Origin: Verrucomicrobiaceae bacterium
Lineage (GTDB): Bacteria > Verrucomicrobiota > Verrucomicrobiia > Verrucomicrobiales > Akkermansiaceae
Reading direction: 5' to 3'
Assembly: GCA_027485995.1 (NCBI GenBank)
Contig: JAIXPW010000034.1
Span: 1 to 52,783 of the forward strand
Length of the DNA stretch: 52,783 nt
Below the pieces are notes generated by a model. It worked only from the letters and a program-made list of their open reading frames with translations, made no database searches and was not told the DNA's origin. A program made the translations under genes and the position numbers. Below are positions 1-37,566 of the stretch, one piece after another; positions within the stretch are counted from its first letter, which is position 1, and each line of letters opens with the position of its first letter.

Positions 1-1629
1 GAGAGCCGTGAAAGTGCGCCGGAGATCTGTCATCGTGATCGTTCCTACGAGGCCGGCTTTGCCGAAAACGAGATCATCCCGATTACCCTGCGCGAGCTTT
101 CGAGCTACATCGACTGGACCCCGTTCTTCCATTCATGGGAGTTGCGCGGTGTGTGGAAGATGGATGAAAAGCGCTTCCAATCGACCAACCCGGAAGTCGT
201 CGTCGAGGCCCACAAGCTGCACGCCGATGCGCTTCAACTGCTCGACAAGATCATCGCCGAACAGCGCTTCACCGCACGTGGCACCTTCGGATTCTTCCCG
301 GCGAATGCCGAGGGCGACGACATCATCGTGTGGAAGGATGATTCAAGGACCAGCGAGCAGACCCGTTTCCACGCGCTGCGCCAGCAGATCAAGAAAGAGA
401 GTGGGAAACCGAATGAAGCGCTTAGCGACTACTTCGCGCCCGTGGCGGCGCTTTCCAAGCGCCAAGCCCCCATCGCGATCACGAGCACACAATTCGTCGA
501 TCGAGAGAAATGGGGCAATCTCCCGCATTGGTATCTGGATGGAGCCACCTATGCTGTTACCTTCCGTCTAGCCGATTCATTGCCTTCGAAAGTCATCAAT
601 GACTACCGAACAGAGAAGCATCGCTTGATGACGGATCTGAAGTCAGCCGACGAAGCAGGCGACCACTCCCTTGCGGAGGATTTCAGAAAGAAAATCGCAT
701 CGCTGTATGACGATTGTATCGAAGACGCCCTCAATCAAGGCCATGGCGAGTGCTGGATGAAGCAACCGGAAATCGCAGAAGTGGTGAAGGAGTCCATTCT
801 TCACTTCGCGGGGGAGCGCTATGATCTCGAAGCCTGGTGTGTGATGCCGAACCACGTCCATCTTCTCCTCCAGCCTCGCAGTGGCCACACACTTCCCGAT
901 ATCCTTCATTCCATCAAACGGCACAGCGCCAAAGTCGCGAATGAGCTTTTGGGGCGAAGTGGCGAGTTCTGGCAGAAGGAATCCTACGATCATCTCGTTC
1001 GGGGGCCCGAGGATTTTTCGAATCAACGGGACTATATTCTGAATAATCCGATCAAGGCCGGGCTGCCTGATTGGACTTGGGTCTCTGAAAAGGCATGGCG
1101 CTTGGAAAGCGCCGCCACGATTCATGATTATATCGGCTCGTTCGTCGTCGGCATCCATGGCGCAGACGAACTCGCAGCCGAATTCGATGCTGCCAGCGAT
1201 CCTTATCAATCGATCATGACCAAGGCCATCGCCGACCGTCTGGCCGAGGCCTTCGCCGAGCTGCTTCACCATCGCGCCCGTGTCGCGTGGGGATACGAGC
1301 GTCCGGACGAGTTCACCAGCGAGCAGCTCATCAAGGAAAACTACCGTGGCATTCGTCCCGCGCCGGGCTATCCCGCGCAGCCGGACCACACGGAAAAGCC
1401 GATCCTGTTCGATCTACTAGGGGCATCGGAGAAGACCGGCGTCACCTTGACGGAAAGCATGGCCATGCACCCGGGCTCCGCTGTTTCCGGCCTCTACTGC
1501 GCACATCCCGAAAGCCACTACTTCATGATCTCGGAACTGCAGAAGGATCAGATCGAGGACTACGCGAGGCGCAAGGGCATCACGGTCGAGGAGTGCGAAA
1601 AATGGCTGGCTCCGTGGCTCGGCTATTGA
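1..1629 (+). CDS. metH: Cobalamin-dependent methionine synthase (3' part), C-terminal activation domain interrupted by an in-frame RAYT transposase
   Basis: The frame is open from the first base, so the gene starts upstream of the window. MetH transfers a methyl group from methyl-tetrahydrofolate to homocysteine; this part is the AdoMet-binding reactivation domain. Visible MetH signatures are YIDWTPFF near base 106, FFPAN, RFHALRQQ and DYFAPVA before base 447, then DYIGSFVVG from base 1126, ADRLAEAFAE, IRPAPGYP (the AdoMet-binding R-x-x-x-G-Y) and ARRKGITVEE at the end. Between DYFAPVA and DYIGSF, where E. coli MetH has only a few residues, lie about 225 residues of a Y1/HUH transposase (FRLADSLP, PNHVHLLLQP, YILNNPIKAGL). 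The frame is kept throughout and there is no stop. Whether the chimera is still a working methionine synthase cannot be told from sequence; the MetH residues on both sides look intact. Confidence 0.93.
   Translation, partial: ESRESAPEICHRDRSYEAGFAENEIIPITLRELSSYIDWTPFFHSWELRGVWKMDEKRFQSTNPEVVVEAHKLHADALQLLDKIIAEQRFTARGTFGFFPANAEGDDIIVWKDDSRTSEQTRFHALRQQIKKESGKPNEALSDYFAPVAALSKRQAPIAITSTQFVDREKWGNLPHWYLDGATYAVTFRLADSLPSKVINDYRTEKHRLMTDLKSADEAGDHSLAEDFRKKIASLYDDCIEDALNQGHGECWMKQPEIAEVVKESILHFAGERYDLEAWCVMPNHVHLLLQPRSGHTLPDILHSIKRHSAKVANELLGRSGEFWQKESYDHLVRGPEDFSNQRDYILNNPIKAGLPDWTWVSEKAWRLESAATIHDYIGSFVVGIHGADELAAEFDAASDPYQSIMTKAIADRLAEAFAELLHHRARVAWGYERPDEFTSEQLIKENYRGIRPAPGYPAQPDHTEKPILFDLLGASEKTGVTLTESMAMHPGSAVSGLYCAHPESHYFMISELQKDQIEDYARRKGITVEECEKWLAPWLGY
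441..464 (+). repeat. Left REP-like hairpin of the metH-embedded RAYT
   Basis: A GTGG tetranucleotide (442-445) precedes the stem GGCGCTT (447-453), loop TCC (454-456) and AAGCGCC (457-463). The whole 24 bp is an exact inverted copy of 1096-1119. It is translated as part of MetH. Confidence 0.9.
1096..1119 (-). repeat. Right REP-like hairpin of the metH-embedded RAYT
   Basis: Stem GGCGCTT (1097-1103), loop GGA, stem AAGCGCC (1107-1113), with the GTGG foot on the minus strand. It is the exact reverse complement of 441-464, so the transposase lies between two REPs in inverted orientation. Confidence 0.9.
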
Positions 1630-1723
1630 TGTCAGAAGTGGTCGGCCCAACCAACCGGTGCTTTCCCGAAACATTCCAGGCCTCCTCGACGTTTGATGCC
1701 GGTCAATTTCTTTGTTTTCTGAT

Positions 1724-4243
1724 ATGCTTCGCCATCTTGCCCCAGTCCTCTTCGTTGGATTCTCGGCCCTGACCCAAGGCCAGGTTCCGCTTCCCGCCTC
1801 AATCCAACAAGCTCAGGGCAAGTTCACCCTGAAAGCAGAGGATCAGATCCAAACCAACTCTCCCGCAGCCGCCAAGGAGGCCGAGAAGCTCGCGGCGGGT
1901 CTGAGGCTTCCCACGGGATTTCCGCTGAAGGTCGTCTCCACCGAGGCTCGCGTGCGAATCGGCATCGATGAGAGCCTGAGGGCATCCGCCGGAAAGGAAG
2001 GCTATCAGCTCAACATCACGACCGGCCAGGTGCAACTGACCGCGTCGGACAGCGAAGGCCTTTTCCATGGCATCCAGACGTTGCGGCAGCTTTTCCCTCC
2101 AGCGGCATTCTCCCCGACCAAGGTTGATGGCATCGAATGGTCGGCCGCCTGCACCCGCATCAAGGATCAGCCGCGCTTCGGCTGGCGTGGGTTCATGCTC
2201 GATGAGTCGCGGCATTTCTTCGGACCCGACTACGTGAAGCATCTCCTCGATGCGATGGCGGCGCGGAAGATGAACGTCTTCCACTGGCATCTCACCGATG
2301 ACGATGGCTGGCGCATCGAGATCAAGGCCTGGCCGAAGCTCACCGAGATCGGTGCCTGGCGCGGCACCGAGTGCAAACTGCCCAACACCCGCGAAGGCGA
2401 AACCCACAAGCGTTACGGCGGCTTCTACACCCAGGAGCAGATTCGCGAGATCGTCGCCTACGCAGCCGAGCGCCACATCGACATCCTGCCGGAAATCGAT
2501 CTTCCCGGGCACTGCCTCGCCGTGACGACCGCCTATCCGGAGACGCTGCCTTCCGTGGGAGATGATACCGTTTCCGTGCAAGGTGTGAAATCGAACGTCA
2601 TCTCGCCGGCCCGCGAGGAAAACTATCGGATGGTCGATGACATCATGCGTGAGGTCGCCTCGCTTTTCCCGTTCCAATACATCCACATCGGCGGCGATGA
2701 GGTGAACCACGAGGCGTGGTCGAAGGACCCGGCGGTCAAGGAGCTGATGACTCGTGAGAAGCTCGCCAACCTCAGCGCGGTGCAGAACCATTTTACCCGT
2801 CGCCTGGAAACCATCATCGGTGGTCACCAGCGGCGGATGATCGGATGGAATGAAATCCTCGGCGGTGGCAAGCTGCGCGAGGATACCACCGTCATGGCCT
2901 GGACCGGAACGGGACCCGGCTTCGAGGCCGCGAAAAAGGGCCACCCGGTCATCATGGCGGCTGGTCCGTTCTGTTACCTCGACATGGGTTACGGCGGCCC
3001 CGACGAACCCAAGGGCCACTGGTGGGCGGGAAATATCGAAACCTCGAAGACCTATTCGTTTGATCCGATCTCCGGTGGCAATCTGACGCCTGATCAGCAG
3101 TCGTCGATCATGGGACCCCATGCCGCGCTGTGGACCGAGTTCGTCACCGATGGCAACGGCGCGGACTACAAGATTTTCCCGCGACTTTGCGCGCTTGCGG
3201 AAGTCGGCTGGACCCCGCAGGAACGTCGTTCGTGGGAGGACTTTTCCAAGCGGCTCGGACCCGATCTCGAGCGGCTGAATCATCAGGGAATTGCTTTTCG
3301 AGTCCCACCTCCGACCGCGACTTGGAAGGAGGGCAAGGCCCGACTCATCGCACCATTTCCAGGTGCCGACCTGCGCTACACCACGGACGGCAGCAAGCCG
3401 ACCGCCGGGTCCCCACGATACACCGCGGCCATTGCAATCGAGGACCCGTCCAAGCTCCGCTATGTGACCCTCTTCCAGGAGCGTACGAGTCCTGCGAAGA
3501 ATGGCGCGGAACGTGAAGGCTTCGCCAAATGGACGCCGCAAACGGTGACCACTGATTGGAAATCGACTGACTTCGATGCTACTACCGCCATCGTAGGTGA
3601 CGGCATTCATCGCGCCAATTTCCAGTACAGCAGTGGCGGACAGAAGCTGATGATCCGCAAGGTCGAACTCGTCCGGGATGGCAAGGTGATCGCGACCGAC
3701 ACTCATGATGGTGAAACCGGAAGCCGATCGAGCAACAACAGCTATCGTCTCGCGGTCGAGGGTCACCGGAGCGGAGCCAAGTACACTCTTCGTGCCGAGA
3801 TCAAGGCCGACGGCGGCAACGATTCACATGGGTCGATCTCGCTTGAGCGGTCCTCATGGCTGGAACCGCTCATGAAGGTGGAGACCTCGATCCCGCACTA
3901 TCAGGACCATGACACAAAGGCTCTGGAGTCGTGGAACCCTGGTGCGTTCTTCTGGTCGAGTCGCCCGCTTTCGAAAGATGAAGTCATCACATTCACCTTC
4001 GAAAAGCCCCTGGCGCTGGATCACGTCGAACTCCCGACTGGTGAAGCCTCCGGCACCAAGGATCAGATCCAGAACGCGGTGCTGGAGGCATCGTTCGATG
4101 GGAAGAGTTTCACCAAGATCGCCGACTTCGCCTACGGCAATGCCAAGGCCGAACTCAAGGGCAAGCCGGTTGTCGCGATCCGCCTGCGTGCCACGGGCCC
4201 GCACGCCAGTTGGTGCATCGTCCGCCCTCCACAACTCCGCTGA
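1724..4243 (+). CDS. Secreted beta-N-acetylhexosaminidase, glycoside hydrolase family 20
   Basis: Hydrolyses terminal beta-linked N-acetylhexosamine from chitooligosaccharides or glycoconjugates. The ATG at 1724 is preferred to the in-frame TTG at 1712 because it begins a clean signal peptide (MLRHLAPVLFVGFSALTQG); export to periplasm or outside is inferred. Domains: GH20b-like region (about 20-140), GH20 barrel (about 150-500) with GWRGFMLDESRHFF and NVFHWHLTDDDGWR, and the catalytic Asp-Glu pair in HIGGDEVNHE near residue 325. A chitobiase C-terminal type domain follows (ADLRYTTDGSKPT), then a C-terminal beta-rich region of about 200 residues resembling a carbohydrate-binding F5/8 module. 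Substrate could be chitin, peptidoglycan fragments or host glycans; the sequence does not decide. No strong Shine-Dalgarno is seen. Confidence 0.92.
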   Translation: MLRHLAPVLFVGFSALTQGQVPLPASIQQAQGKFTLKAEDQIQTNSPAAAKEAEKLAAGLRLPTGFPLKVVSTEARVRIGIDESLRASAGKEGYQLNITTGQVQLTASDSEGLFHGIQTLRQLFPPAAFSPTKVDGIEWSAACTRIKDQPRFGWRGFMLDESRHFFGPDYVKHLLDAMAARKMNVFHWHLTDDDGWRIEIKAWPKLTEIGAWRGTECKLPNTREGETHKRYGGFYTQEQIREIVAYAAERHIDILPEIDLPGHCLAVTTAYPETLPSVGDDTVSVQGVKSNVISPAREENYRMVDDIMREVASLFPFQYIHIGGDEVNHEAWSKDPAVKELMTREKLANLSAVQNHFTRRLETIIGGHQRRMIGWNEILGGGKLREDTTVMAWTGTGPGFEAAKKGHPVIMAAGPFCYLDMGYGGPDEPKGHWWAGNIETSKTYSFDPISGGNLTPDQQSSIMGPHAALWTEFVTDGNGADYKIFPRLCALAEVGWTPQERRSWEDFSKRLGPDLERLNHQGIAFRVPPPTATWKEGKARLIAPFPGADLRYTTDGSKPTAGSPRYTAAIAIEDPSKLRYVTLFQERTSPAKNGAEREGFAKWTPQTVTTDWKSTDFDATTAIVGDGIHRANFQYSSGGQKLMIRKVELVRDGKVIATDTHDGETGSRSSNNSYRLAVEGHRSGAKYTLRAEIKADGGNDSHGSISLERSSWLEPLMKVETSIPHYQDHDTKALESWNPGAFFWSSRPLSKDEVITFTFEKPLALDHVELPTGEASGTKDQIQNAVLEASFDGKSFTKIADFAYGNAKAELKGKPVVAIRLRATGPHASWCIVRPPQLR

Positions 4244-19571: not shown

Positions 19572-19667
19572 TCAAATGCTCGGGAATTGCTTTCCCAGTG
19601 AAAGCCGTTGAAAGAGCCGGTGGCCCGACCGGAGGGCGGCAAAAACGTTGTTTTGATAGGTGCTCAT
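19572..19667 (-). pseudogene. 31-codon orphan start of an Mrr_N-type gene
   Basis: The ATG overlaps the metallopeptidase stop (ATGA), and the first 12 codons read MSTYQNNVFAAL, matching MSTDQNDVFTAL of the intact downstream gene. The frame then diverges and stops after 31 codons. This marks the place where the Mrr_N gene once directly followed the metallopeptidase gene. Confidence 0.65.
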
Positions 19668-19744
19668 GGAATGGAACTGGATGACTTTGTAACCCACTGG
19701 CTGGACTCGCTGAGGTGAAGCAGTCGTTCAATGTGGCCGGCGGC
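19642..19744 (-). repeat. Direct repeat, proximal copy (3' end of the metallopeptidase gene)
   Basis: Gap-free partner of 18519-18621, about 85 percent identical. It covers the last 26 metallopeptidase codons, the overlapping ATG and the start of the orphan ORF. Confidence 0.85.
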
Positions 19745-20554
19745 ACGGGTGATAGCGTAGAGGTCGAGCCCTTCGGCGGATTCACCGCTCTCGACGTAGG
19801 CGCTCAGGTACTTCTGCGAGCGACATTCGACTCCATTGCGGTGGCAGACGATGTAGGCGACAGACTCGGCCTCGATCTCACGCAGCCTGTGAATCACGAC
19901 GCTTCGGTCCTGGATGCCCATCTTGTTGTCATCGCCCAAATGCCCGAGAAACAGGTGTCCCAGCTCGTGCGCCAGCGTCACGAATGACATGGCGGCACTG
20001 TGATTCCGATTCAGTCCCAGCTCGTAGGTGGAGTAGGTCTTTTTGTCTTTTGCACGTGTAAGGCGGCGGATGAAGCCTGCGTCGTTGTCGCCCTGATCGT
20101 AGGGTTTTGTGAAGATCAGCTTTCTCTCCAGAATCGCCTTGAAGGTGTCGATCCGAGTACCGTCAATCCTCCCCTTGGCGTAGAAAGCGAAGGCGTCCTT
20201 TGGCAATTCAGGCCCTTCGGTGTCGAGCATGTCGAAAACGAGGGCTACAGGTCCAAAAGGCCACATGATGAGGAGCGGGCGTGCCTTTTCCTTCACGGTG
20301 CGCTGGAAGCGATGTTTCCAATCATAGGCGGAGGCGGCGTAGTTCAGTCCCGGCTTCTGAATTTGCAGTAGCATGGCATTGAAGGGAGCCATGTTGCGGA
20401 GGCGGATAGTGAAATCGAGAAGCTCCTGAAACTCCTTGCTCGATTGGTAGAGCTTGGAATCGATCAGGAGCTGATCGAGCAAATTGCGTTCGTAGGTAAC
20501 GTCTTCGAACGGTAGTTCTGGCTGTGCTTCAGGGTCGATCGTTGGCTCGCTCAT
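19664..20554 (-). CDS. ArdC/ImmA-IrrE-like zinc metallopeptidase
   Basis: 296 residues. The N-terminal part (about 20-110) resembles the ArdC ssDNA-binding domain: MAPFNAMLLQIQKPG, AYDWKHRFQRTVKEKARP. The zinc site is AHELGHLFLGH (His196, Glu197, His200), with the third ligand probably Glu228 or Glu230 in REIEAESVAYIVC. ArdC proteins protect incoming mobile DNA from restriction; ImmA/IrrE proteins cleave phage-type repressors. Either role fits an island that also encodes a methylase and helicase. It starts 4 nt after the zinc-finger gene, so it is co-translated with it. Confidence 0.8.
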   Translation of the reverse strand: MSEPTIDPEAQPELPFEDVTYERNLLDQLLIDSKLYQSSKEFQELLDFTIRLRNMAPFNAMLLQIQKPGLNYAASAYDWKHRFQRTVKEKARPLLIMWPFGPVALVFDMLDTEGPELPKDAFAFYAKGRIDGTRIDTFKAILERKLIFTKPYDQGDNDAGFIRRLTRAKDKKTYSTYELGLNRNHSAAMSFVTLAHELGHLFLGHLGDDNKMGIQDRSVVIHRLREIEAESVAYIVCHRNGVECRSQKYLSAYVESGESAEGLDLYAITRAAGHIERLLHLSESSQWVTKSSSSIP

Positions 20555-20558
20555 CGTT

Positions 20559-21437
20559 CTAGACCTCTTTCGTCACGATTTCTTCGATGAATCCGGTCCC
20601 TTTGCAATCCGGGCAGTCGAAATCTTCGTTCTCTCCCTCACAATCCGGGCATAGCACTTCGTCTGCACCCTCACAGTCAGGACAGCATGACGGTGTCTTG
20701 ACCAACCCTGATCCCTCGCACTCGACGCACTTCACTTCTCCGTAAAAATTGAATGCGATCACCTTCTTGTTGTTGCATAGAAAGCAAGTCTCGGTGGGCT
20801 TGGAATCCCGGCATCTTTTGCATCTCACGACCGAGACATACTCAGATCGATCCAGGAGAAGCTTGTCGTTATCCTTCATGTCCGAATACCAGTCACTTCC
20901 AAATCGGGCTTCGATGATCGCTCTGATTTCTGATTTTTCCCAAGCGCGACAACTGATGGCAAGGGGATCTCGCGCAATTGATGTGCCAGCGCCCGCGCAT
21001 CTCGTGCAACTGACCAAACAATAGTCCGATACCTTCCAATCCGGCGCGTCGGTAATTCCGGAGCCTTCACATCTGGGGCAGTTCGAATAGCCTGTTCCCT
21101 CACAGTTCTGGCATTTGATCGAGCGGGTTCCTTCGCACCTGGAGCAGACTGACTTTGACTTGTAATCCTGAAGCAGGCGAACCTGAAAGCCGCGGCCTTG
21201 GCAAACCGCACAGTTCATCCGATCCAACGGGGCGATGGATTTGAGGCCTTTGCAGGTTGGACAGACCTCGGGTTCATTAGCCTGACTGAGGATCCACCCG
21301 ACTCCCGAACATCCTGAGCACACTACATTGGAAGACTGGTCCGATCGAACTGCACCGGTCTCGTCACAGGCCGCGCAAGCGACCCTTTGAAGGTAGCGCT
21401 CTCCGACTGAGACTAGGTTTGGCGGCTCTTCGTCCAT
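20559..21437 (-). CDS. Cysteine-rich protein with 14 CxxC zinc knuckles, DnaJ zinc-finger-like
   Basis: 292 residues containing 14 CxxC pairs, many as CxxCxGxG (CQNCEGTG, CPRCEGSG, CPDCKGTG), the zinc-finger repeat of DnaJ. There is no J domain and no substrate-binding domain. A cysteine-poor helical insert of about 50 residues (WEKSEIRAIIEARFGSDWY) separates the first eight knuckles from the last six. Likely a protein-binding scaffold or chaperone-like partner for the neighbouring nuclease proteins; this is inference. It starts 15 nt after the CpXC-like gene. Confidence 0.75.
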   Translation of the reverse strand: MDEEPPNLVSVGERYLQRVACAACDETGAVRSDQSSNVVCSGCSGVGWILSQANEPEVCPTCKGLKSIAPLDRMNCAVCQGRGFQVRLLQDYKSKSVCSRCEGTRSIKCQNCEGTGYSNCPRCEGSGITDAPDWKVSDYCLVSCTRCAGAGTSIARDPLAISCRAWEKSEIRAIIEARFGSDWYSDMKDNDKLLLDRSEYVSVVRCKRCRDSKPTETCFLCNNKKVIAFNFYGEVKCVECEGSGLVKTPSCCPDCEGADEVLCPDCEGENEDFDCPDCKGTGFIEEIVTKEV

Positions 21438-21452
21438 GGTGGCACTACTGAC

Positions 21453-21593
21453 TTATTGCGAACGTGCCGACCACTCAAGAAGCGGTCCTTTGCGGCTGGA
21501 ATCGAGATCGACGCTCACCGAGTTCCAGATCGTGAAACTCTGCTGATGCTGGCATTTCGGGCAGGTTATGCGGGTGGTGTTGCAGCTACTCAT
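21453..21593 (-). CDS. 46-residue CpXC-like zinc protein, half length
   Basis: The ATG lies inside the end of the HNH gene (8-bp overlap). The sequence ITCPKCQHQQSFTIWNSVSV resembles the start of the CpXC domain (CPxC, then a W-x-S-x-x-V strand), but the protein ends before the second Cys pair expected in that family. It may be a truncated gene or a small one-knuckle protein working with the adjacent 14-CxxC protein. Confidence 0.5.
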   Translation of the reverse strand: MSSCNTTRITCPKCQHQQSFTIWNSVSVDLDSSRKGPLLEWSARSQ

Positions 21594-22449
21594 CAGATTT
21601 GCCTTTTGGGGCTGGCGAAAATTGGCGAGCGAACTCCAGCAATCGCAGGTTGAGTTCATCGCAGTCCCGAGAGAAATGTGCCTCACGGTGGCAGTTCGGG
21701 CACAGGGCGACACAGGTCCAAGCACGGTCGCTCTTCTCGGCACCGAGGATGTGGTGGACATCGAGGAAGCCGGGGAAGTCGCGGCTGGCACCGCAACCGG
21801 GGCGTTCACAGGTGCCCTTGCAGCGCTTGATGACTTCACGACGGACGGCGGGGTCCCGTTTCACGCCGGAGACGGTCTTGAGAGCCCGCTGGGCCTCGTC
21901 GCGGCCGAGTAGGGTCAGATCAATACCAGCTAGGTCGTTGAAAGTATCGTCGTCAGGGCTTGCTGTGAAGGCATCAGGCCCGCTTCCACGCTGCAAGCGG
22001 CACAAGCCGCTCTCTTCATTGTAACTGTCAATGTGCCAAGGCTCTGGATCGAGGCCGCGACATTTGACCGAACGGTCACCATTTTGGTCGGCAGGTCCAT
22101 CCAGGATGATGGCTCGCACAGGGAGATGCTTTTGAAAGGCGGTTCGAAATGCCTCGTCCATGCGCTTGTAACGCGTCTTGTGGATGGAGCTTAGTTCCGG
22201 GCGTTGGACCAGAACTTTAGCATAATTGAGGATCTGGAAGGCCCCGCTGGTGTCTTCCTTCATGTCTCCAAACCACAAGCAGATCACGACCCGATCCTGT
22301 GTCACGAAGCACCACTCGTAACAGTATTTGGGGTTTATCTCTGGTGATTCGGGACGCTTGTAATTCGACCAGTCAGAGACATCGACGCCTGCCTGGCGAA
22401 CCAGATCGTAAACACGCAGACGCTCAGTGGGCTTCAGGGATTGAATCAT
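21586..22449 (-). CDS. HNH endonuclease domain protein
   Basis: 287 residues. The last 85 residues are an HNH nuclease: RREVIKRCKGTCERPGCG, FLDVHHILG (first catalytic His pair), then TCVALCPNCHREAHFSRD. The two CxxC/CxxxxC pairs bind structural zinc. The N-terminal 180 residues (YEWCFVTQDRVVICLWFGDM...) match nothing I can name but look like a substrate-recognition domain, as in McrA-type modification-dependent enzymes. The gene follows the ATPase gene after an 86-bp gap holding a fragment of the methylase 3' end. Confidence 0.8.
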   Translation of the reverse strand: MIQSLKPTERLRVYDLVRQAGVDVSDWSNYKRPESPEINPKYCYEWCFVTQDRVVICLWFGDMKEDTSGAFQILNYAKVLVQRPELSSIHKTRYKRMDEAFRTAFQKHLPVRAIILDGPADQNGDRSVKCRGLDPEPWHIDSYNEESGLCRLQRGSGPDAFTASPDDDTFNDLAGIDLTLLGRDEAQRALKTVSGVKRDPAVRREVIKRCKGTCERPGCGASRDFPGFLDVHHILGAEKSDRAWTCVALCPNCHREAHFSRDCDELNLRLLEFARQFSPAPKGKSDE

Positions 22450-22456
22450 GGGAAAT

Positions 22457-22528
22457 CTATAGCTGGTATCCTTGCTTCCATACGCGACCCTCCTGATTGA
22501 TGATCCCGAGGAGGGCTTGGGGATTCAT
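22457..22528 (-). pseudogene. Duplicated 3' tail of the methylase gene, between ATPase and HNH genes
   Basis: A 23-codon reading frame contains ALLGIINQEGRV, matching LLAIIKQEGRV at the C-terminus of the methylase. It lies directly upstream of the HNH gene, suggesting the HNH gene once followed the methylase gene directly and the ATPase gene came in between. Confidence 0.65.
22479..22514 (-). repeat. Direct repeat, distal copy of the methylase 3' end
   Basis: 36 bp matching 24222-24257 with 4 differences. Confidence 0.75.
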
Positions 22529-22535
22529 CTAGGCA

Positions 22536-24224
22536 TCATTTCAGGAGCGTTGCTTCGAGACGTGCGACCAAGGTCAGGGCCTTCTTTACCTCGGCAATGT
22601 AAAGCGGAGTTTCAGACCAATGGGCGGCGGGGTTGAGAACGCGGTCTTTCATTTGGAGGACCGCGTCGAGGACATCGATCGCATCGAGAGCTTTCCACGC
22701 CTCTTTGGTCATGAACTGCTTTAGCTTTTCGCGCTGTTGCTTGAGCAACGTCTTCTCTTCTGAAGTGAGAGCTGCATCGGCATCGAAGTCGTCGTCGTTC
22801 ATTCGGACAAGCTTGTCTCTATGCACCTTGGGAACCTTGGAACAAACGTCCTTGAACATCTGAATGGGAAGCTGGTTCAGGAGGATATTCTTCGCCTTAT
22901 CCAGTTTTGCGGAGAGTGAATGAAACTCACCTGGCTTTGGGGCCTTGCCCGTTGCCATCCTCAAGTAATTTTGGGCAGTGTCCTCAGCAGCTTTTCGAAG
23001 TTGCAGGGCGGCCGCCTCCAAGTCGTGCCCGTTGAGGTAGTCAGTCGCCTTCTCTAGTGCGTCCTTCTCCTCCTTTGGGTCGATTCCATCTTTGGGATTC
23101 CCTTGGAGCATTCGAAAGCACCAATCTGTGTGAGCAATGCCAATCATCCTGCGAAACTCTTCGAAGAGTCCCCGGTCGTGGGTGAGGATGATCTTCTGGT
23201 AATCTGCAAGTGAGGAATCGGTAAGGAGGATTTCGACGACCTTCATCCGGTTGCTCATGTCGAGGCTGACGAGAAGGTCGTCAAGGACAAGGAGCTTGAG
23301 GTCGGAGTCGTGCAAGTTGACGAGTGAGGCGGCGAAGCGGACGGAAAGGGCGAGTTGTGTGAGCTTGGCTTCGTTGAGGAAAGCCTGGGGGCGATTGACT
23401 ACTGCGCCCGCGACCTGAATGCCGAACTCAATGACGGGCTTGGTGAAAATGAAATCCTGCTGCGTGGACCCAGTTGCTGACGGTAGCGTGGTGACGCCAA
23501 GCTTCAATGTTATCGTGGCAGGATCGTCGGCTGCGAAATGCTGGTCGTAAAACCGCTGTGCCTCAACGCTGATGGAATTAACGATGGTCGGAAGGATGGT
23601 GGCAAAGATGGCGGTGTTGCGCTTGAATAGGTCGTAATTGTACGTTCCGCCAGGACCACGGCTGCCGTAAGGGTTCGGGTCGCCATTCTTGATGGCATTC
23701 CAGCAGTCCAAGGGCACGTTGCCACCGGTGGAAACACAAAACGGCAAAATCTCCTTCTCAAAGAGTGGCCACAGGTTGAACCTCTCCGAGTTCCGAAAAG
23801 CCGTAAAGCCGAAGAAGAACCGATAGGTGATGAAATCGCTGGCGAGATCTCCTTTGAGGATGGCCGGTTGATGGTGCGTTCCGTGGACGGTTTCACCATT
23901 TGAATCTCGGCCAATTCTGTAGGTGGTGTCAGTCTTCGTGGCAACATCGCGAAGTGTCATGGCGATCTGTCCGGGCTTTGGCAAAGGGCTCGCCTGTTCG
24001 TGGATGTTAAGGAGATTTTCAGGCCCTCCGGGATCGAAGTATTTGGCAATGGAATTCTTCAGCTTCCGTGCGCTTTGGAGGAAGGTATAGAGTGCCCAGT
24101 AGAGTGAGGATTTGCCAGCTCCGTTGTCGCCGTAAACGAGGAGGTGGCGGCCTTCGAGGTCGAGGGTGAACTCTCGAAATGCCTTGAAGTTCGTTATTTG
24201 GATCTTCTGTAGGCGGGCCTTCAT
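22536..24224 (-). CDS. RecF/SMC-like ATPase of the defence operon
   Basis: 562 residues. Walker A is YGDNGAGKSSLYWAL (residues 31-45), preceded by the typical ITNFKAFREFTLDLEGRH. Near residue 290 lies an ABC-signature-like region (LTQLALSVRFAASL), then Walker B LKLLVLDDLLVSLD (about 306-319) and an H-loop ILTHDRG. The C-terminal 180 residues are helical (ALEKATDYLNGHDLEAAALQ) and could be a HEPN-like or coiled-coil partner domain. It overlaps the methylase stop (ATGA). With the helicase and methylase it forms the core trio; it may sense DNA ends or phage replication intermediates (inference). Confidence 0.85.
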   Translation of the reverse strand: MKARLQKIQITNFKAFREFTLDLEGRHLLVYGDNGAGKSSLYWALYTFLQSARKLKNSIAKYFDPGGPENLLNIHEQASPLPKPGQIAMTLRDVATKTDTTYRIGRDSNGETVHGTHHQPAILKGDLASDFITYRFFFGFTAFRNSERFNLWPLFEKEILPFCVSTGGNVPLDCWNAIKNGDPNPYGSRGPGGTYNYDLFKRNTAIFATILPTIVNSISVEAQRFYDQHFAADDPATITLKLGVTTLPSATGSTQQDFIFTKPVIEFGIQVAGAVVNRPQAFLNEAKLTQLALSVRFAASLVNLHDSDLKLLVLDDLLVSLDMSNRMKVVEILLTDSSLADYQKIILTHDRGLFEEFRRMIGIAHTDWCFRMLQGNPKDGIDPKEEKDALEKATDYLNGHDLEAAALQLRKAAEDTAQNYLRMATGKAPKPGEFHSLSAKLDKAKNILLNQLPIQMFKDVCSKVPKVHRDKLVRMNDDDFDADAALTSEEKTLLKQQREKLKQFMTKEAWKALDAIDVLDAVLQMKDRVLNPAAHWSETPLYIAEVKKALTLVARLEATLLK

Positions 24225-27200
24225 ACGCGGCCCTCCTGTTTGATGATGGCGAGGAGGTCGGGGCTGTCGGCGGAAAGGCGGAGCAAGCGGTTGCGCACTG
24301 AATGGCTCGGGGCGTTCAGCGTGGCGTGCAGATGGGTAAGAAAGTAGCGCTGCTGAGCTTCGCTGGCGTCGGAATTGTAGGCGTCGAGGTGCAGGGCCAC
24401 GGTGTCATGGAATAGCAGGTCGCGCTCCGCCATGTGGTCGCGGAAGTAACACTCCATCACGCAGGCGTCGATGAGGTCTTCGAGGAAGGCGGCGGCTCCG
24501 GGGCTGGCTCCGGCATCGGATTTGGCAAACTGGATGAGGTTCGTAAGACTCCCGATCAACTTTGATGAAGCGTCCGACAACTCGGGCATAGGGAGTCGCA
24601 CGAGATGTCCTTTTTTCACCTGTGCCAGAGCCTCACCCACCTCTGGGTTTACTACCTTCCGGTAATACCACCGAAGAACGGATGAGTTCAGAAGCGCGAG
24701 CAAGCATGGCAACGTATGGGAGCCCGTTCGCCGGCGGATGGTGTAAAGATTGTCCATGGTGACAAATTTCTGGGTGTCCAGCGCTGCAATCAGAGTGTCT
24801 CCAGTTTGCCTGATTACAATTTTCTCGGGTTCATCAAATCCAGCGGACTCTCTCGGCTCGGCCAGCCAGGTTCCATACTTTACCCAAAGGTCTCTATCCC
24901 ATTTAATTTGAAAAGGAACGACATGCTTTCCCCGAAGCAGGGGTCGAAATCCGGGTTTCTCATGGTCCGAGGTAAAGGGTTTCAGATCGACGCATTCGCG
25001 ATTTTGCGGCGGCACACCTTTCCCTGTTTGATAGAGCTTGGAGCCTTGGGTGACTACGAAGAGATCCCCGAGGGTGGAACTGCCGGAAATTTGAGCGGCT
25101 ATTTTCGTGAGACTCGGCGTGAGCGCGACACTGATTGGCTCACCCGGCCTGAGATTCCATTCACTTTGCTTCTGCAGATACAGCAGTTCGAATCCAGCGT
25201 CTGTGTATGCGTAGATGGGGAAAATATTGTCGGAGGAACTGAGGTTTCGATGGGTCAGAATTGTCGTGTCAACCACAGCGGCGAATACTGCGGTTCGAAT
25301 ATCGGCCAAGCTGACCAATGTGGTTGAGCCAACCACAAACTTCCTTATGGATTTTAGCATCAGAGAAGGCAGCCAAGTGTTCGGGACGATGAACGATTGA
25401 ATGCCGGTCCTCCGAAGCAACTGGATGCCTCGCTCAACAAACAACAAATAGGTATCGAGTTGGTAATCTTGGTGTTTGTAAGCCCTGCCGACTGCTGCCT
25501 TTGCCAACTCGGTAAGAACAGCCCCATAGGGTGGATTGCCGATTACAATATCGAAGCCTTCCGCGAGTGATTTTCCGAACATCCAGTGTGGATCGAAGAA
25601 GTCGGCAGAGGATTGCGGATCAAATGGATCCCATTCTGCGATGTGTGCGGATTTTTTGCGAGACATGAGACTCTGGGCCAGAACATCCGCCATCTCCTTT
25701 CGGAGGGCTTTTACTTTGCGTTGGTTCGCCAGCTTTCTGTCTCGCCGCTGCTCGGAGAAATGGTTGTGGTAGAGGGTTTCGATGTCGGCTTCGATTTTGT
25801 AAACGCGCGGGTCGACCAACTCCATTTGATCAAGCTCCGGCAGGCCTATGAGGGTGTCGGCGGCGACGAACTTGGTTTCCAGATTGGGCAGGGGGCGGAT
25901 GCCGTGGTTGTCCTTTTTGTTACGGTTGGTCTTCTGGTCACAGACGAGGGAGATGAAGAAGCGGAGCTTGGTGATCTGGATGGCGATGGGCTGGATGTCC
26001 ACGCCATAGAGGCAGTTTTCGATGAGGTAGAGCTTGCGGCCGTAGTCGTCGTTGTTGTCGGCAAAGGCACGTTCGAGTTCCTCGCGCATGGGGGCGGAGT
26101 CGAGCTTGGCGAGCTGGGTCTGCTTCCAGCGATCGTTGTCGGGGTCGAGCTTGCCAAGGATATAAACGAGCTTGTGGAGGACGCCCATTGGGAAGGCCCC
26201 TGAGCCGCAGGCGGGGTCGAGGATCTTCAGTGCGTCGATGGCGACGATTAGGGTGGCGACTTCGGTGGGGTTGAAGGCGTGCTCTTTCTCGGTGTAGGCG
26301 AAGAGGAGGTCGAGGCCGGCGCGGGCATCGGGTTCTTTCATGCGTGCCGTCTCCACGAGGGCGAGGGTGAGGTGGGCCTTGAGGGACTCGTCCACCATGT
26401 AGTCCACGATGGGGCGCGGCGTGTAGAAGGAGCCGGTCTGCTTGCGGGCGGTGGTCTTGGTTTCCTCGTTGTAGGAGGCGAGGAGGTTTTCGAAGACTTT
26501 GCCGAGGAGTTCGGGATCAAGGGCGATTTCCTGATCGATGGGGGTGTTCTCGACGATGGTGAACTTATACCGGTTCAGGATGGTGATGAGGCCGGTGACT
26601 TTTTCGGCTTTGCGCTTGGTGTCGCCGTAGGCGGTGGAGAGGTCGGCGGTTTCCCCGCTGTCGAAGAAAAGGCGGTCGGGGACGTGGGGGCGCTTTTTGG
26701 CGTTGCGGGAGAACCCGTCGAGGTAGCGCTTTTTGTCGGTGCCGTCCTCGGTGCGGTCGAGACACTCGAAGAGGCCGCCATTGAGGAAGGGGATGTCGGC
26801 GAAGTGGGTGAGGGCTTCCTCCTGGGAGGCGGTGAAGAGTTTCTCGTATCGGTAGAGATTGTTGATGTCGTAGGTGGCGCGATTTTTCTGGAAGCCTTCG
26901 TCGGTGGCGAAAATGCGGTAGGGGTTTCCTTTGCCGTCCTTGCCCATGCGCTGGTTGAGCGTGGCAAAGAAGAGGTTCTGGAGAATGGCCTGATAGTAGG
27001 TGGAGCTGGATTCGCTCTCGGGATCGAACCCCTTGAGGATCTTAGAAAGGTCGGTGGGGTGGAAGAGTTTCTCGGGGATGAGGCCGTCCTTTTCCTTGAG
27101 GAACCAGCAGAAGATGAGGCGGGTGAGCAGGCGTATGAGGCCGGTGGCGTTACGCTTCTCCTTGTCAGGCTCCAAGTCGGCAGGGAACTCGACCTGATCG

Positions 27201-27919
27201 AGCGCCCAAAAATACCAGTTGGAGAGTTCCTTGTAGAAACGGCTGTTAAGTAGCTCGATGTTGAAAACTTGCTCCCACGCAGCGTGGAGGGTGTCGAAGT
27301 CGGTGATGGGTAGCTTCTTGGGATGAATGAGGTTTTCGACTGCGAAGGACGCAAGAATATCGAGGTGGCCGCGATGGGGTTCGGTGAGCGAGATGTCACG
27401 GATGAGGGTGACCTTTTCCAGCACGTCCTTTTCGGCATTGACCTTGTTGCGGCGGCGGTTGATGACGGCGATAGAGAGGCACTGGCCATGCTTGAGTATG
27501 ACCATCACGGGCATGGGGAATACCCTGTTGATCTGACGGGCGATGGAAGTGAGCTTGCCTCGTGCGTAGTCCTTGCCTTTCAGCTCGATGGCGAAGAAAA
27601 GGTAGGATTGGAGTAGGCTCGGAAGAACCGTGGTGTCCTTGAAGAGGCTGCGCTCTCGGGAGATGTCCGCGTCACTTAGCTGGAAAAGGATGTCGGCGGA
27701 TTTCCAATCAGAGAAAAGGGCCTTGGATTCGTCGAACTTGGTTTCCCCACCTTGGGAGGAGATGAGGTCGAGGAAGGCTTGGGGCTTTGAGTCTTCGAGG
27801 TTGAGGGTGCGGTCGCTCTCGTAGCCGAGGGTTTTGAGCAGGCCTTTCGCCGCGTCCCGGAGCGGGCCGGAGGCAAGGGCTGAGAGCGCGGAGTGGATGG
27901 CAGGGCGGAGATCGGGCAT
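24221..27919 (-). CDS. Eco57I/PglX-type adenine DNA methyltransferase
   Basis: 1232 residues from the ATG at 27919, 5 nt after the helicase stop; an upstream in-frame start would overlap the helicase gene. AdoMet motif I is ILDPACGSGAFPMGVLHKL near residue 565, and catalytic motif IV NPPYG near residue 792 marks an N6-adenine methylase. QTGSFYTPRPIVDYMV precedes them, as in type IIG and PglX enzymes. The last 350 residues resemble the target-recognition part (RPLLRGKHVVPFQIKWDRD, MDNLYTIRR). The N-terminal 200 residues contain FFAIELKGKD, which could be a degenerate PD-(D/E)xK site, but I cannot confirm a nuclease. Role: marks self DNA for the defence system. Confidence 0.87.
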   Translation of the reverse strand: MPDLRPAIHSALSALASGPLRDAAKGLLKTLGYESDRTLNLEDSKPQAFLDLISSQGGETKFDESKALFSDWKSADILFQLSDADISRERSLFKDTTVLPSLLQSYLFFAIELKGKDYARGKLTSIARQINRVFPMPVMVILKHGQCLSIAVINRRRNKVNAEKDVLEKVTLIRDISLTEPHRGHLDILASFAVENLIHPKKLPITDFDTLHAAWEQVFNIELLNSRFYKELSNWYFWALDQVEFPADLEPDKEKRNATGLIRLLTRLIFCWFLKEKDGLIPEKLFHPTDLSKILKGFDPESESSSTYYQAILQNLFFATLNQRMGKDGKGNPYRIFATDEGFQKNRATYDINNLYRYEKLFTASQEEALTHFADIPFLNGGLFECLDRTEDGTDKKRYLDGFSRNAKKRPHVPDRLFFDSGETADLSTAYGDTKRKAEKVTGLITILNRYKFTIVENTPIDQEIALDPELLGKVFENLLASYNEETKTTARKQTGSFYTPRPIVDYMVDESLKAHLTLALVETARMKEPDARAGLDLLFAYTEKEHAFNPTEVATLIVAIDALKILDPACGSGAFPMGVLHKLVYILGKLDPDNDRWKQTQLAKLDSAPMREELERAFADNNDDYGRKLYLIENCLYGVDIQPIAIQITKLRFFISLVCDQKTNRNKKDNHGIRPLPNLETKFVAADTLIGLPELDQMELVDPRVYKIEADIETLYHNHFSEQRRDRKLANQRKVKALRKEMADVLAQSLMSRKKSAHIAEWDPFDPQSSADFFDPHWMFGKSLAEGFDIVIGNPPYGAVLTELAKAAVGRAYKHQDYQLDTYLLFVERGIQLLRRTGIQSFIVPNTWLPSLMLKSIRKFVVGSTTLVSLADIRTAVFAAVVDTTILTHRNLSSSDNIFPIYAYTDAGFELLYLQKQSEWNLRPGEPISVALTPSLTKIAAQISGSSTLGDLFVVTQGSKLYQTGKGVPPQNRECVDLKPFTSDHEKPGFRPLLRGKHVVPFQIKWDRDLWVKYGTWLAEPRESAGFDEPEKIVIRQTGDTLIAALDTQKFVTMDNLYTIRRRTGSHTLPCLLALLNSSVLRWYYRKVVNPEVGEALAQVKKGHLVRLPMPELSDASSKLIGSLTNLIQFAKSDAGASPGAAAFLEDLIDACVMECYFRDHMAERDLLFHDTVALHLDAYNSDASEAQQRYFLTHLHATLNAPSHSVRNRLLRLSADSPDLLAIIKQEGRV
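24222..24257 (-). repeat. Direct repeat, proximal copy (methylase 3' end)
   Basis: Last codons of the methylase and the ATG of the ATPase gene. Partner copy at 22479-22514. Confidence 0.75.
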
Positions 27920-27924
27920 GAGGA

Positions 27925-30900
27925 TCAGGAAGGTTTTACGATGGCGAGCCAAGTGACGAGTTCCCAATCGCCATGGTCAGCGGTGACGGATTCTTCAGCG
28001 GTGGGTATGAGCGCCGCACGGCTGCCAAGGAGATTGACCGCCACGCGTTTCTGGAAGGTGGTTTCAATCGTACGCAGGGCACTGCCAACCAGGGCCGCGT
28101 AGTGGTTCATGTCCGCACCGTTGCTAGTGACGGAATCGAAATGGGCGCAGAGCTTGGTGAAGGCGCTGGTTTTTCCAGCGGCGAGGGCGCGGAGGAGATT
28201 GAGGGTTTCCTTCGGTTGGGCGAAGGAGAAGCGGACCGTACCGTCGTCGTGGATGTAAACGAGGAAGTGTGGGGCGAGTGGGTTAAGCTTTTCCCCGGTG
28301 CTGGATTTCATGTCCACCTGGGAGGCACGACGAAGACAGAACAAGGCACCGGGTTGGATGGGCGGCGCGTGTTTCTCTGGTGGCGGTACCACGGCGTAGA
28401 GGCCAAGCGGGGCTTCCTCCATTTCGGCGCGGCGGGTGTCGAGGAATTGGAGGAGTTCGATGCGGAACTCATCGAGCGAGAAGCTGGTGAGGCTTGGTGA
28501 ATCGTCGAGGTCTTCGAGGTCGAGGACCGAGTTCTGAAGCGCTTTGAGTTGCTTGTTTCTGAACTTGAGATCCTCGTCGATCAGGTCTTCAAGTTGATCG
28601 ACTTCCAACAGATTGTCCGTTTGTGTAGCGGAAAGGTCCGCAAGAGCCATGCGAGCCTCGACGCGGTGTTTGACGTTGAGATATTTATCGAGGTCTGCAA
28701 CGGGCCAGAAGTTGACGAGCTGGACGGAATTATTGAGCGAGCCGATCCGGTCGATCCGGCCGAAGCGCTGGATGATGCGGACGGGGTTCCAATGGATGTC
28801 GTAGTTGATGAGGAAATCGCAGTCCTGGAGATTCTGGCCTTCCGAAATGCAATCGGTGGCGATGAGCAGGTCGATTTCCTCCACCTGATTTGGAAAGCGG
28901 TTCTTCTGTTCGGTCCGGCGTTTGGCTATGGGTGAGAAGTTGGTGAGGATGTCGTCGTAGTCCGCAGTGCCGAGGGTGGTGGCGTTGTCGCCATCGCCGA
29001 GGACGCGGGCGAGATGGATGCCGAGGTCGTTTCGTGCCCAGTCCTTGATCTGAGCGTGGAGGTATTTGGCAGTGTCGGCAAAGGCCGTGAAGACGAGAAT
29101 TTTCCGGACGGACCCGCCGTTGCGGTTGATGTTGGGTTTCGCGACCTTTTGAGAAACCAGTTCCCTTAGTTGGGCGAGCTTGGCGTCCCGCTCTGGAGTG
29201 ACCTTCTCGGTCTTGTCGAGGAGGTATTGGAGCTGGGCCTTGTCGTGGCGGACAGCTTTCAGCCATTCGTCGCGCTTGAGGTGACCGAGGTGCAGCTTGC
29301 GCCGACCACCGATGGTGAATCCCTTGACGAGGTCCGGGTCGATGTCTGGATCTTCAAACTGGTCCGGTAGAACGGAATCGAAGTCGAGATCACCGTTTTC
29401 GTCGGCGTGGATCTCGAATCTTTCGATCTTGGCTTCGAGAGTGTCGATCTTCTCGATGGTGCGCTTGAGCGTAAGTCGGAATGAATCCACCGAGCTTTCC
29501 AAACGCTTGAGGAAGTTGATCTTCATCATGGCGACCAGAATGCGCTCCCGGCCCTGCTGGGTGAATCCACCGAGGATCTTGTCTTCGTAAGCGGCTCGGG
29601 TTGCGGCTGGAAGGTCGTCTCGCAGATAGCTGGTTGGGTGATAGAGTGCGAGGCTGAGAGCGTCGATCTCCTCGTTGAGCTCCTCGAAGGAGAGGAACTT
29701 GTTGCTGAGGTCGATGGGCGGGTGGATCGAAATCGGAGGCTGCCTATCTGGGAAACCACCCAGCTTCGTCATCTCATTCTTGTAATAATTGACAATCTGC
29801 GACCGCGAACGGGCGATGCTGAGGCCGTCGAGGAGCTTAAAGAAGTCGCCGCCGATCGTTTGGAGAAGATCCTTGGTCGTGCGCTCCTCCGGTTTTTTCT
29901 TCGACCAGGTGGTAAAGTGGCTTTGGGCAATGCGTGTGGTGTCCTTGACGGAGGCGATGCCGAGGGACTCTTGAAACGATTGGTTGGCAAGTTCACTGCG
30001 GGTCACGTCGCCGCCGGCGATGAAGGAAATCTGGTTCCGGAGGTCGGCGAGCTGGTTGTTGACCGGCGTGGCAGAGAGAAGCAGGACCTTGGTGCGGATG
30101 CCTTGTTGGATGATGTCCTCCATGAGCCGCTGGTAACGCGTGCGGCGGACGGACTCGTCGGGGTCCTTGGCTTCGCGGATGGCGTTGTTTCGGAAGTTGT
30201 GGGACTCGTCGATGACGATGAGGTCGTAATTTCCCCAATTGATGGTGGCCAAGTCGATGCCATCGACATCACCCCTTTCCCGCGAGAGGTCGGTATGGGA
30301 CAGCACGTCGTAACGGAAGCGGTCCTTGTCGAAGAGATTCAGCGAACTATTTGAGCGATAGACGGTCCAGTTCCGACGGAGCTTTTTCGGGCAGAGAACG
30401 AGGACCCGCTCGTTTTTAAGTTCGAAGTATTTGATGACCGCGAGGGCGGTGAAGGTTTTGCCGAGGCCGACGCTATCGGCGAGAATGCAGCCATTTGTGG
30501 CGAGGATCTTATTGATCGCGGCTTTAGCTCCGTCCTTCTGGAAGGAGTAGAGTGTTTGCCAAATTTCGGTGTCAGGGAGCGCCGTGCGAGTGAGGGCGTC
30601 GTCGAGATCCTTCGCGCCATCGATGTAATCGCGGAAGAGGTGGAAGAGCGTGAGGTAGTAGATGAACTCCGGCGCATGATCGGAATGGAGGCGATCCAAC
30701 TCCGCGAGGACCTTCTCGCGAACATCGCTGGTAATGGATTGGTCATTCCAGAGTTCATCGAACCATGAGCGGAGATCCGTGAGATCGCGCCTGGAATCGA
30801 CGATGAGGTTCAATTCGACGTTGTTTCCAAAGGATTTCAGGCCGAGGCCGGGGACGGTGAAATTCGAACTGCCGAGGATGGCGTTATCCACCCCGCCATT

Positions 30901-31305: not shown

Positions 31306-31560
31306 CGCAGAGTAAAGGGCAGATAGCAGGTTAGACGGGGAGTGGATTCCCTCCAACTTCTCATCCCCCAAGTTCAGACTAACGCCAGGAGCGAGGGAAG
31401 CCGGATCACCCAGAAGTGGAGGATTTTGCACATGCCCCCCAGACCGTCGAGCTTCTGGTTCTCATGCGCTCGGAAACAGCGGGAAGCCGGACTGGAGTTG
31501 GGGCTAGCCAATTGAATGAAACAAACTTGCTCCAATGGAGGAGCGATTCTGGTCATAACC
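31306..31560. promoter_or_regulatory. Divergent control region between helicase operon and terS-like gene
   Basis: About 255 bp without a convincing gene unless the helicase uses its upstream start at 31431. It must hold the promoter of the cargo operon on the minus strand, but no strong -35/-10 pair is seen there. Confidence 0.4.
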
Positions 31561-37465: not shown

Positions 37466-37566
37466 GCAGGGGATTGCGCCCTGTTGCCATCATCGTCTTG
37501 GAATCCGCGCCGAACTACTACTGCTCTCGTAGGTTTCGAGCGGCGGGTGAGGGTTGTGGAAGTGTG

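What the first reader, a model, noticed from the sequence alone, without database searches (positions are those of the whole stretch)
441..1119. A RAYT transposase lives inside the methionine synthase protein, in frame, between inverted REPs
The frame runs from MetH through a complete-looking Y1/HUH RAYT (HVH near 853; YILNNPIKAGL near 1033) and back into MetH without a stop. Both ends are exact 24-bp inverted repeats with GTGG feet and GGCGCTT/AAGCGCC stems. The transposase has no start codon of its own before its conserved N-terminus and no stop, so it can exist only as a MetH domain. RAYTs are known as stand-alone REP-flanked genes; use of an essential enzyme as a tolerated, translated home would be a new kind of selfish arrangement, like an intein but without splicing. 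The insertion sits where MetH families have a short loop in the AdoMet domain.
Basis: partly seen in the sequence, partly recalled or inferred. Interest (0 to 1): 0.93.

Follow-up and report, generated by a model that had tools for sequence, protein, structure and literature searches.

The report
Transposase nested inside bacterial core enzymes
The methionine synthase gene of this bacterium carries, in the same reading frame and without a stop, a REP-flanked transposase; relatives carry such transposases at the same spot, other bacteria carry them inside further core enzymes (some aminoacyl-tRNA synthetases among them), and they likely persist there as translated, unspliced passengers that move between strains.

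Summary
In detail: window 1-1629 is one open frame, the MetH activation domain split by a 675-nt REP/RAYT/inverted-REP element in a five-residue loop. It is no one-off. In 16 of 56 genomes with MetH (own included) a RAYT sits at this site, in frame, mostly with its own lineage's REPs. Close pairs differ by presence (flanks 92-97% identical); G012/G001 hold different RAYTs in 91-93% identical hosts; G014/G016 hold identical RAYTs in 77-85% identical hosts. Catalytic residues are intact in 199 of 200 embedded copies; insert dN/dS is 0.05-0.18. RAYTs also sit inside IspG, CarB, LeuRS, ValRS, AlaRS, Sua5 and restriction enzymes. Embedded RAYTs tend to cluster by host and site, like intein alleles, but without canonical splicing residues. 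Best reading: REP elements living as translated, unspliced domains of working enzymes and re-entering the same sites laterally. Translation, function and catalysis are untested. My paper searches found no description; one survey discarded long RAYT proteins as fusions or annotation errors.

The parts
1..1629 (+). C-terminal 542 codons of methionine synthase MetH with the RAYT inside; one open frame
   Evidence: frame runs off the contig's 5' end
88..450 (+). first part of the MetH activation domain (PF02965 positions 2-117)
442..1116 (+). inserted element, 675 nt (multiple of three), no stop; borders set by me from the alignment with relatives
441..468 (+). left REP arm (core 442-463, GTGG foot, GGCGCTT/AAGCGCC stem)
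508..1083 (+). RAYT (TnpA-REP) domain, residues 170-361 of the frame
   Evidence: 4er8 match
853..861 (+). HUH motif (HVH, residues 285-287)
   Evidence: invariant in alignment A1
1033..1035 (+). catalytic tyrosine (Y345, YILNNP)
1092..1119 (-). right REP arm in inverted orientation (core 1097-1118)
1114..1578 (+). second part of the MetH activation domain (PF02965 positions 117-273)

Best explanation
A REP-flanked RAYT transposase sits in frame inside MetH here, and such elements likely persist as translated, unspliced domains of still-working enzymes and re-enter the same sites by lateral movement, much as inteins do but without protein splicing. Shown from sequence: the open frame, the REP ends, the same site used in 16 genomes, REPs that differ between lineages, presence/absence and replacement at the site, intact catalytic residues, purifying selection, and no second copy of the host enzyme in nearly all genomes tested. 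Inferred: (1) the host gene's promoter and ribosome-binding site express the transposase as part of one long chain; (2) host and transposase fold side by side, with the REP-encoded peptides as flexible linkers, so the enzyme still works; (3) the RAYT cuts its own REP hairpins as single strands and helps the element enter an empty allele, with or without host recombination; (4) sitting in a conserved enzyme protects it, because a careless deletion would break an enzyme the cell needs.
For: Same site, in frame, in 16 of 56 MetH-bearing genomes: 14 in one contig, 2 cut by contig ends. MetH host tree (51 rows, 14 filled): filled/empty needs 8 changes; three RAYT labels that I set (clade A, clade B, G044's own) need 6 among the filled rows. 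Swap: G012/G001 hosts 93/91%, inserts 64%. G003/G007 insert dS 0.26, host dS 1.19. Orphan REPs: G011 has an empty MetH site and no cognate RAYT among its three hits, yet 17 window-type REPs against 16 in G000; of the other 57 genomes 55 have 0 or 1, G031 has 2 and G023 has 17. HUH+Y in 199 of 200 RAYT domains in frames of 330 aa or more. Insert dN/dS 0.05-0.18. Clustering by host and site: 26 changes against 91 for shuffled labels. AlphaFold: 405 of 542 residues at pLDDT 70 or more, low at 150-159 and 365-374 where the REP linkers lie; Foldseek finds 1msk (TMt 0.80) and the RAYT-REP complex 4er8 (TMt 0.64). One IspG per genome in 17 of 17; one LeuRS in 12 of 13. Cultured strains carry it: Roseibacillus persicicus KCTC 12988 (MetH), Luteolibacter pohnpeiensis KCTC 22041 (IspG).
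Against: No protein, RNA or activity data. pTM is only 0.55, so the relative placement of the two modules is unknown. Identity running 20-47 nt beyond the element fits plain homologous recombination of the host gene as well as RAYT-driven entry, so the transposase's own part in the movement is unproven. No target duplication or clean empty site could be defined because the loop itself varies. Exact flanking inverted runs of 14 nt or more are found for only 45 of 68 long-frame RAYTs and 17 of 27 short-frame ones, six contig-edge loci set aside; the MetH insert of G005 (L052) has none. Clustering by site is weaker for LeuRS (12 rows, 3 changes; 8 rows, 5 changes). G052 has, besides its RAYT-bearing LeuRS piece, a second LeuRS piece without insert that covers the site, so there the host may not be the sole copy. 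REP-like remnants at three empty sites (L034, L038, L040) are suggestive only. Of the five dN/dS pairs two share one insert sequence and have saturated dS.
Confidence: 0.76

Rival explanations
1. The RAYT domain is a host-recruited (domesticated) module that gives MetH and other enzymes a useful extra function, such as nucleic-acid binding or regulation, and is kept for that reason.
For: Purifying selection on the insert; TnpA-REP in general has been called a domesticated transposase (PMC8266576, start of abstract in the listing); some hosts carry two copies (11 of 358 proteins).
Against: Filled/empty changes at least 8 times on the MetH tree; two close pairs differ by presence; hosts are unrelated, from aminoacyl-tRNA synthetases to restriction enzymes; the window element keeps its REP ends and a genome-wide REP population.
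Confidence: 0.12
2. The insert moves only passively: homologous recombination between metH genes of related strains exchanges segments and carries the RAYT along; the transposase is not involved after the first insertion.
For: Identity runs 20 and 47 nt past the element in G014/G016; RAYTs tend to cluster by site, as expected if they rarely jump to new genes.
Against: Borders lie within tens of bases of the REP ends in the clearest case; catalytic residues stay intact in 199 of 200 copies, which passive passengers would not need; the embedded/stand-alone state changes 18 times on the wider tree, at least 7 forced by starred branches, so new entries or exits do occur.
Confidence: 0.3
3. The insert is removed after transcription or translation, as an intron or an intein-like element, so the enzyme is never fused.
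For: None direct. Protein splicing would also require a conserved frame.
Against: With the borders as I set them, first residues are V, C, G or T and last residues A, T, V or G in 14 of 14 MetH inserts, no terminal Asn/Gln; no intein domain in the Pfam scan of the window protein; removal at the RNA level would not need an open frame through the REPs, which all 14 keep.
Confidence: 0.05
4. Assembly artefact or decaying pseudogene.
For: The window's contig starts inside MetH and the assembly is 84% complete.
Against: Genomes of several projects, a single-contig 4.39-Mb genome (G003) and two culture-collection strains show it; open frames, dN/dS 0.05-0.18, no second host copy in nearly all genomes tested.
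Confidence: 0.02

Closest known systems
RAYT / TnpA-REP in a REPtron (rayt gene between inverted REPs)
   Same: HUH-Y1 domain, NHVH and YxxNNP motifs, GTGG/GTAG-footed inverted REPs at both ends, REP population in the genome
   Different: no stop of its own; read only as a domain inside another enzyme, at recurrent sites. In PMC2817692 (passages seen, one from the abstract) rayt ORFs are described as always flanked by two inverted REPs, as units like transposable elements
Intragenic REPs and Rickettsia palindromic elements (RPE)
   Same: palindromic elements inserted in frame in protein genes, including repair and tRNA synthetase genes; the verrucomicrobium Opitutus terrae has the most intragenic GTAG repeats (PMC3733652, sections 15 and 16 and passages read)
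   Different: those encode 20-82 residues and no transposase; here a whole transposase domain of about 190 residues is in the insert
Inteins with homing endonucleases (recalled)
   Same: in-frame insert with a DNA-cutting enzyme at conserved sites of core enzymes; alleles tend to cluster by site; two sites in one host; patchy presence, lateral movement
   Different: no canonical splicing residues, a different nuclease class (single-strand HUH), REP palindromes at the ends; the insert stays in the enzyme
IS200/IS605 insertion sequences
   Same: distant HUH-Y1 relatives
   Different: NCBIfam IS200 model far below its cut-off (26.5 vs 55 bits for L221) while the RAYT model is met (84.4 vs 80)

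Membership tests
RAYT (TnpA-REP) | HUH motif and Y1 tyrosine in a Y1_Tnp fold | tested here: met
   (4er8 TMt 0.64)
RAYT (TnpA-REP) | curated RAYT family score over cut-off (NF047646, 80 bits) | tested here: inconclusive
   window 75.1 (just under); Roseibacillus MetH copy 84.4, Luteolibacter IspG copy 80.7
REPtron | two REPs in inverted orientation flanking the rayt, with GT(A/G)G foot | tested here: met
   window. Among long-frame copies exact inverted runs of 14 nt or more in 45 of 68
REPtron | cognate REP population in the genome | tested here: met
   38 copies with up to 3 mismatches, 0 in control
REPtron | rayt is a gene of its own with start and stop | tested here: not met
   no stop before the MetH tail; a GTG is present at 442
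Intein | splicing residues (N-terminal Cys/Ser/Ala, C-terminal Asn/Gln, +1 Cys/Ser/Thr) and Hint domain; list recalled | tested here: not met
   no terminal Asn/Gln in 14 of 14 inserts; no such family in the Pfam scan of the window protein
Intein | lateral movement into the same site | tested here: met
   (so it works like one; it is not a member)
Intragenic REP / RPE | in-frame palindromic insertion in a protein gene | tested here: met
Intragenic REP / RPE | short (tens of residues), no transposase inside | tested here: not met
   675 nt with a RAYT domain
RAYT (TnpA-REP) | cleaves its cognate single-stranded REP | not testable with these tools
   needs a biochemical assay

The most novel reading that the evidence does not exclude
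RAYTs define a second class of homing protein-insertion elements beside inteins: single-strand nucleases that colonise fixed sites in core enzymes, are translated by them, never splice out, and spread allele to allele while seeding REP populations elsewhere in the genome, in Verrucomicrobiota, Planctomycetota, Acidobacteriota and beyond.
Probability: 0.5. Interest if true: 0.95.

Novelty: new variant of a known kind. Interest (0 to 1): 0.88.

Why it matters
It would give mobile elements a third way to live in core genes: not beside them (insertion sequences), not spliced out of them (inteins, introns), but inside the finished enzyme. It offers a possible answer to how some REP populations are kept supplied with transposase, since a RAYT locked in a core enzyme would be expressed free of charge and be hard to delete. 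It supplies a large natural set of domain insertions that enzymes apparently tolerate (LeuRS, CarB, IspG, MetH and others), and suggests that long RAYT proteins should not be thrown out of surveys as annotation errors. The steps are testable in culturable strains and in laboratory E. coli.

Tried and rejected
Rejected: single freak insertion (16 genomes share the site); artefact or pseudogene (cultured strains, single-contig genome, dN/dS); intein membership; a purely vertical history. My first impression that a 78-row clade holds only embedded RAYTs (0 of 27 stand-alone) was too strong: adding 25 short-frame rows (four Verrucomicrobiota, the others from other phyla or unplaced) put stand-alone copies into the wider clade, and only the narrower set of MetH, IspG, TPR and DinG copies (49 rows, support 81) stays all embedded.

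Led nowhere: a target-site duplication could not be defined, as the loop varies between species. REP-like remnants at three empty sites are suggestive, not proof of excision. A class-wide search with a strict cut-off (at most 8 candidates scored per genome) found matches in 14 of 384 genomes, 13 of 15 matches in frames of 444 aa or more; I did not identify those hosts beyond genomes already seen.

Rows dropped: shorter duplicate loci L017, L019, L031, L032, L046, L048; L074 for a 97-nt upstream flank (51 of 52 rows used); MetH site-2 P rows thinned to one in six and rows under 150 aa left out; a hand-picked subset with rows under 165 aa left out; six contig-edge loci. 'Embedded' means a frame of at least 330 aa or 400 aa (for L191-L270), so a few entries may be long stand-alone frames. 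Loci were mostly chosen for long frames, so their share of embedded copies is not a rate. Host families were scanned for 20 representatives, others assigned by BLAST clusters; L137, L144 and L168-L170 have no host family named. The lists were capped.

Full report
OBSERVATION. The window's first 1629 bases are one open frame of 542 codons plus stop. Pfam reads it as the MetH activation domain (PF02965, E 1.4e-101, two stretches) interrupted by a Y1 transposase (PF01797, 9.1e-8); NCBIfam's RAYT model scores 75.1 bits, just below its cut-off of 80. The ends of the insert are inverted repeats, 441-468 and 1092-1119, 28 nt, 96% complementary, with a 24-nt exact core. The REP core occurs 38 times in the genome with up to three mismatches, the reversed control 0 times. 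In the alignment with E. coli MetH (1msk) five residues stand where the insert is. The claim of no start codon is slightly off: GTG at 442-444, the REP foot, is in frame. There is no stop before the MetH tail. The contig begins inside MetH and the middle of the gene is missing from this assembly, so the full chain is not seen in this genome; relatives show it whole.

THE SAME SITE IN RELATIVES. Of 59 genomes searched (own included), 56 have a MetH match and 16 of these have PF02965 split near profile positions 108-123. All 16 hold a RAYT there, in frame: 14 in one contig, G009 and G048 cut by contig ends. The inserts fall into groups with different REPs: GTGGCGGCGCTTTCCAAGCGCC here, others in L050/L061, L051/L053, L056/L057, L058/L059/L063, L062, L064 and L065; L052 (G005) has no exact inverted run over 9 nt. 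In the single-contig genome G003 the RAYT-bearing MetH is the only match.

MOVEMENT. Close pairs differ by presence: window/G011 (flanks 92.5 and 95.6%) and G032/G021 (96.0 and 97.3%). G012 and G001 have 92.9/90.8% identical flanks but 64% identical inserts with different REPs, while G014 and G016 have 77.1/84.8% identical flanks and inserts identical over 666 nt. In that pair identity falls off 20 nt left and 47 nt right of the element. G003/G007 inserts differ by dS 0.26, hosts by dS 1.19. On the MetH host tree filled/empty needs 8 changes, and my three RAYT labels need 6 among the 14 filled rows. G011 has an empty site, three RAYT hits at 34-41% identity, none the cognate one, and 17 REPs of the window type, against 16 in G000, 17 in G023, 2 in G031 and 0 or 1 in the other 55 of 59. 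This points to loss in G011, though its assembly is 89% complete. G023 has neither a MetH match nor a RAYT match at E 1e-10, so its REPs cannot be assigned. G001, whose MetH now has a clade-B RAYT, holds 48 REPs of the clade-A type (up to 2 mismatches) and 9 of its own type (up to 1), which would fit a past swap.

ACTIVITY AND SELECTION. HUH and tyrosine are intact in 199 of 200 RAYT domains in frames of 330 aa or more, and in 27 of 27 in shorter frames; the exception is L157. Insert dN/dS is 0.05-0.18 in five pairs, two of which share one insert sequence and have saturated dS; host values are 0.03-0.05 where computable. AlphaFold on 56 sequences gives mean pLDDT 76.5 and pTM 0.55, with low confidence at residues 150-159 and 365-374, the REP-coded joints, besides the N-terminus and a few other spots. 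Foldseek finds the MetH activation domain (1msk, TMt 0.80) and the RAYT-REP complex 4er8 (TMt 0.64).

OTHER HOSTS. Pfam shows host domains on both sides of the RAYT for IspG/GcpE, CarB, LeuRS (editing domain), DUF5107-TPR proteins, Eco57I-type methylase and HsdR; on one side, as far as listed, for adenosine-deaminase-like proteins, glycosyltransferases, NUDIX proteins and RhuM. Protein searches restricted to long proteins gave 294 (MetH query; 109 of the 120 listed carry PF02965), 264 (LeuRS query; LeuRS and HsdR prominent among the 120 listed) and 1609 (CarB query; one listed) with E up to 1e-8. Of the 358 listed proteins 11 carry two full RAYT domains: among them MetH with a second site before the YIDWTPFF motif, and IspG at two sites. 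The genome collection added Sua5 (between its two domains), ValRS, AlaRS and type ISP enzymes with host domains on both sides, and chorismate-binding enzyme, DUF1156 and PglX-like proteins, in Verrucomicrobiota, Planctomycetota and Acidobacteriota. Hosts are single: in 17 of 17 genomes tested (of 18 with an IspG insert) one IspG was found, the RAYT-bearing one; in G001, G010, G025 and G036 it is cut by contig ends. For LeuRS 12 of 13 genomes show one gene (G018's lies on two contigs), other hits being weaker synthetase paralogues; G052 is the exception, with a second, insert-free LeuRS piece that covers the site, either a second gene or a strain variant. Cultured strains Roseibacillus persicicus KCTC 12988 and Luteolibacter pohnpeiensis KCTC 22041 carry MetH and IspG copies.

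SITE-SPECIFIC FAMILIES. In a quick tree of 139 RAYTs, labels of host and site need 26 changes where shuffled labels need 91; MetH site 2 (38 rows) needs 2, MetH site 1 (8 rows) needs 1, CarB (5 rows) 2, LeuRS (12 rows) 3. On a wider quick tree of 142 rows (52 short-frame, 90 embedded) the embedded/stand-alone state changes 18 times, at least 7 forced by starred branches, and LeuRS (8 rows) needs 5. So elements mostly stay with their site but do enter or leave genes.

KNOWN WORK. Rayt ORFs are described as always flanked by two inverted REPs (PMC2817692, passages). In-frame intragenic REPs coding for 20-82 residues are known in Opitutus terrae, Rickettsia conorii and others (PMC3733652, passages and sections 15-16). 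[quoted passage not shown] Biochemistry of REP cleavage is in PMC8266576 (passages). PMC8049555 (passages) models REPIN persistence. My searches list no paper whose title or abstract start describes RAYTs as in-frame residents of enzymes; most subscription papers and bioRxiv's own holdings are outside that library, and I read few papers in full text. Database names such as 'carbamoylphosphate synthase large subunit/REP element-mobilizing transposase RayT' show that automatic annotation sees the fusion.

VERDICT. Structure, distribution, lateral movement and selection are shown by sequence. Translation as one chain, function of the chimera and a catalytic role of the RAYT in re-entering the site are inferred. 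I call it a new variant of a known kind (a REPtron with a new way of life) and keep 'second class of homing protein-insertion element' as the bold reading.

Noticed in passing
window 19664-31431, minus strand: Defence-like cluster: type IV restriction-like protein (21586-22449), SMC-type ATPase (22536-24224), type IIG restriction-methyltransferase with Eco57I/TaqI_C domains (24221-27967), HKD+SNF2 helicase (27925-31431, PADLOC C3a139 E 3.8e-119). Pfam lists no Y1_Tnp in the three larger ones, although relatives' Eco57I-type enzymes carry one.
   Followed up: partly
window 37484-44527: 2347-aa open frame with no Pfam match; an fn3/YDG-domain protein lies at 45873-50072 (minus).
   Followed up: no
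window 1712-4243: GH20 beta-hexosaminidase gene directly downstream of metH; the same neighbour follows the empty metH of G011.
   Followed up: no
P0120: DinG-like helicase with three full tandem REP-coded peptides of about 30 residues (and part of a fourth) before its RAYT and two after it: repeated in-frame REP gains in one protein.
   Followed up: no
L062 (G025 MetH): Insert ends are a 45-nt perfect inverted repeat unlike the usual REP hairpin.
   Followed up: no
L034, L038, L040: Empty MetH sites whose loop DNA resembles REP feet (TGTAGC, ATGGCGGCG, GCCACG): possible footprints of lost elements.
   Followed up: partly
G052 genome: LeuRS appears both with the RAYT (C286) and as an insert-free piece covering the site (C89): a second gene or strain variation within the assembly.
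   Followed up: no
G011 genome: Window-type REPs lie 15 on one strand and 2 on the other as contigs are written; G000 has 8 and 8.
   Followed up: no
L267 (Candidatus Kuenenia record): RAYT inside a BREX PglX-like methyltransferase frame of 1537 aa; restriction and defence enzymes are frequent hosts besides core enzymes.
   Followed up: no
P0353: DUF1156 protein from a Methylococcaceae record with two RAYT domains, so the habit seems to reach Pseudomonadota.
   Followed up: no
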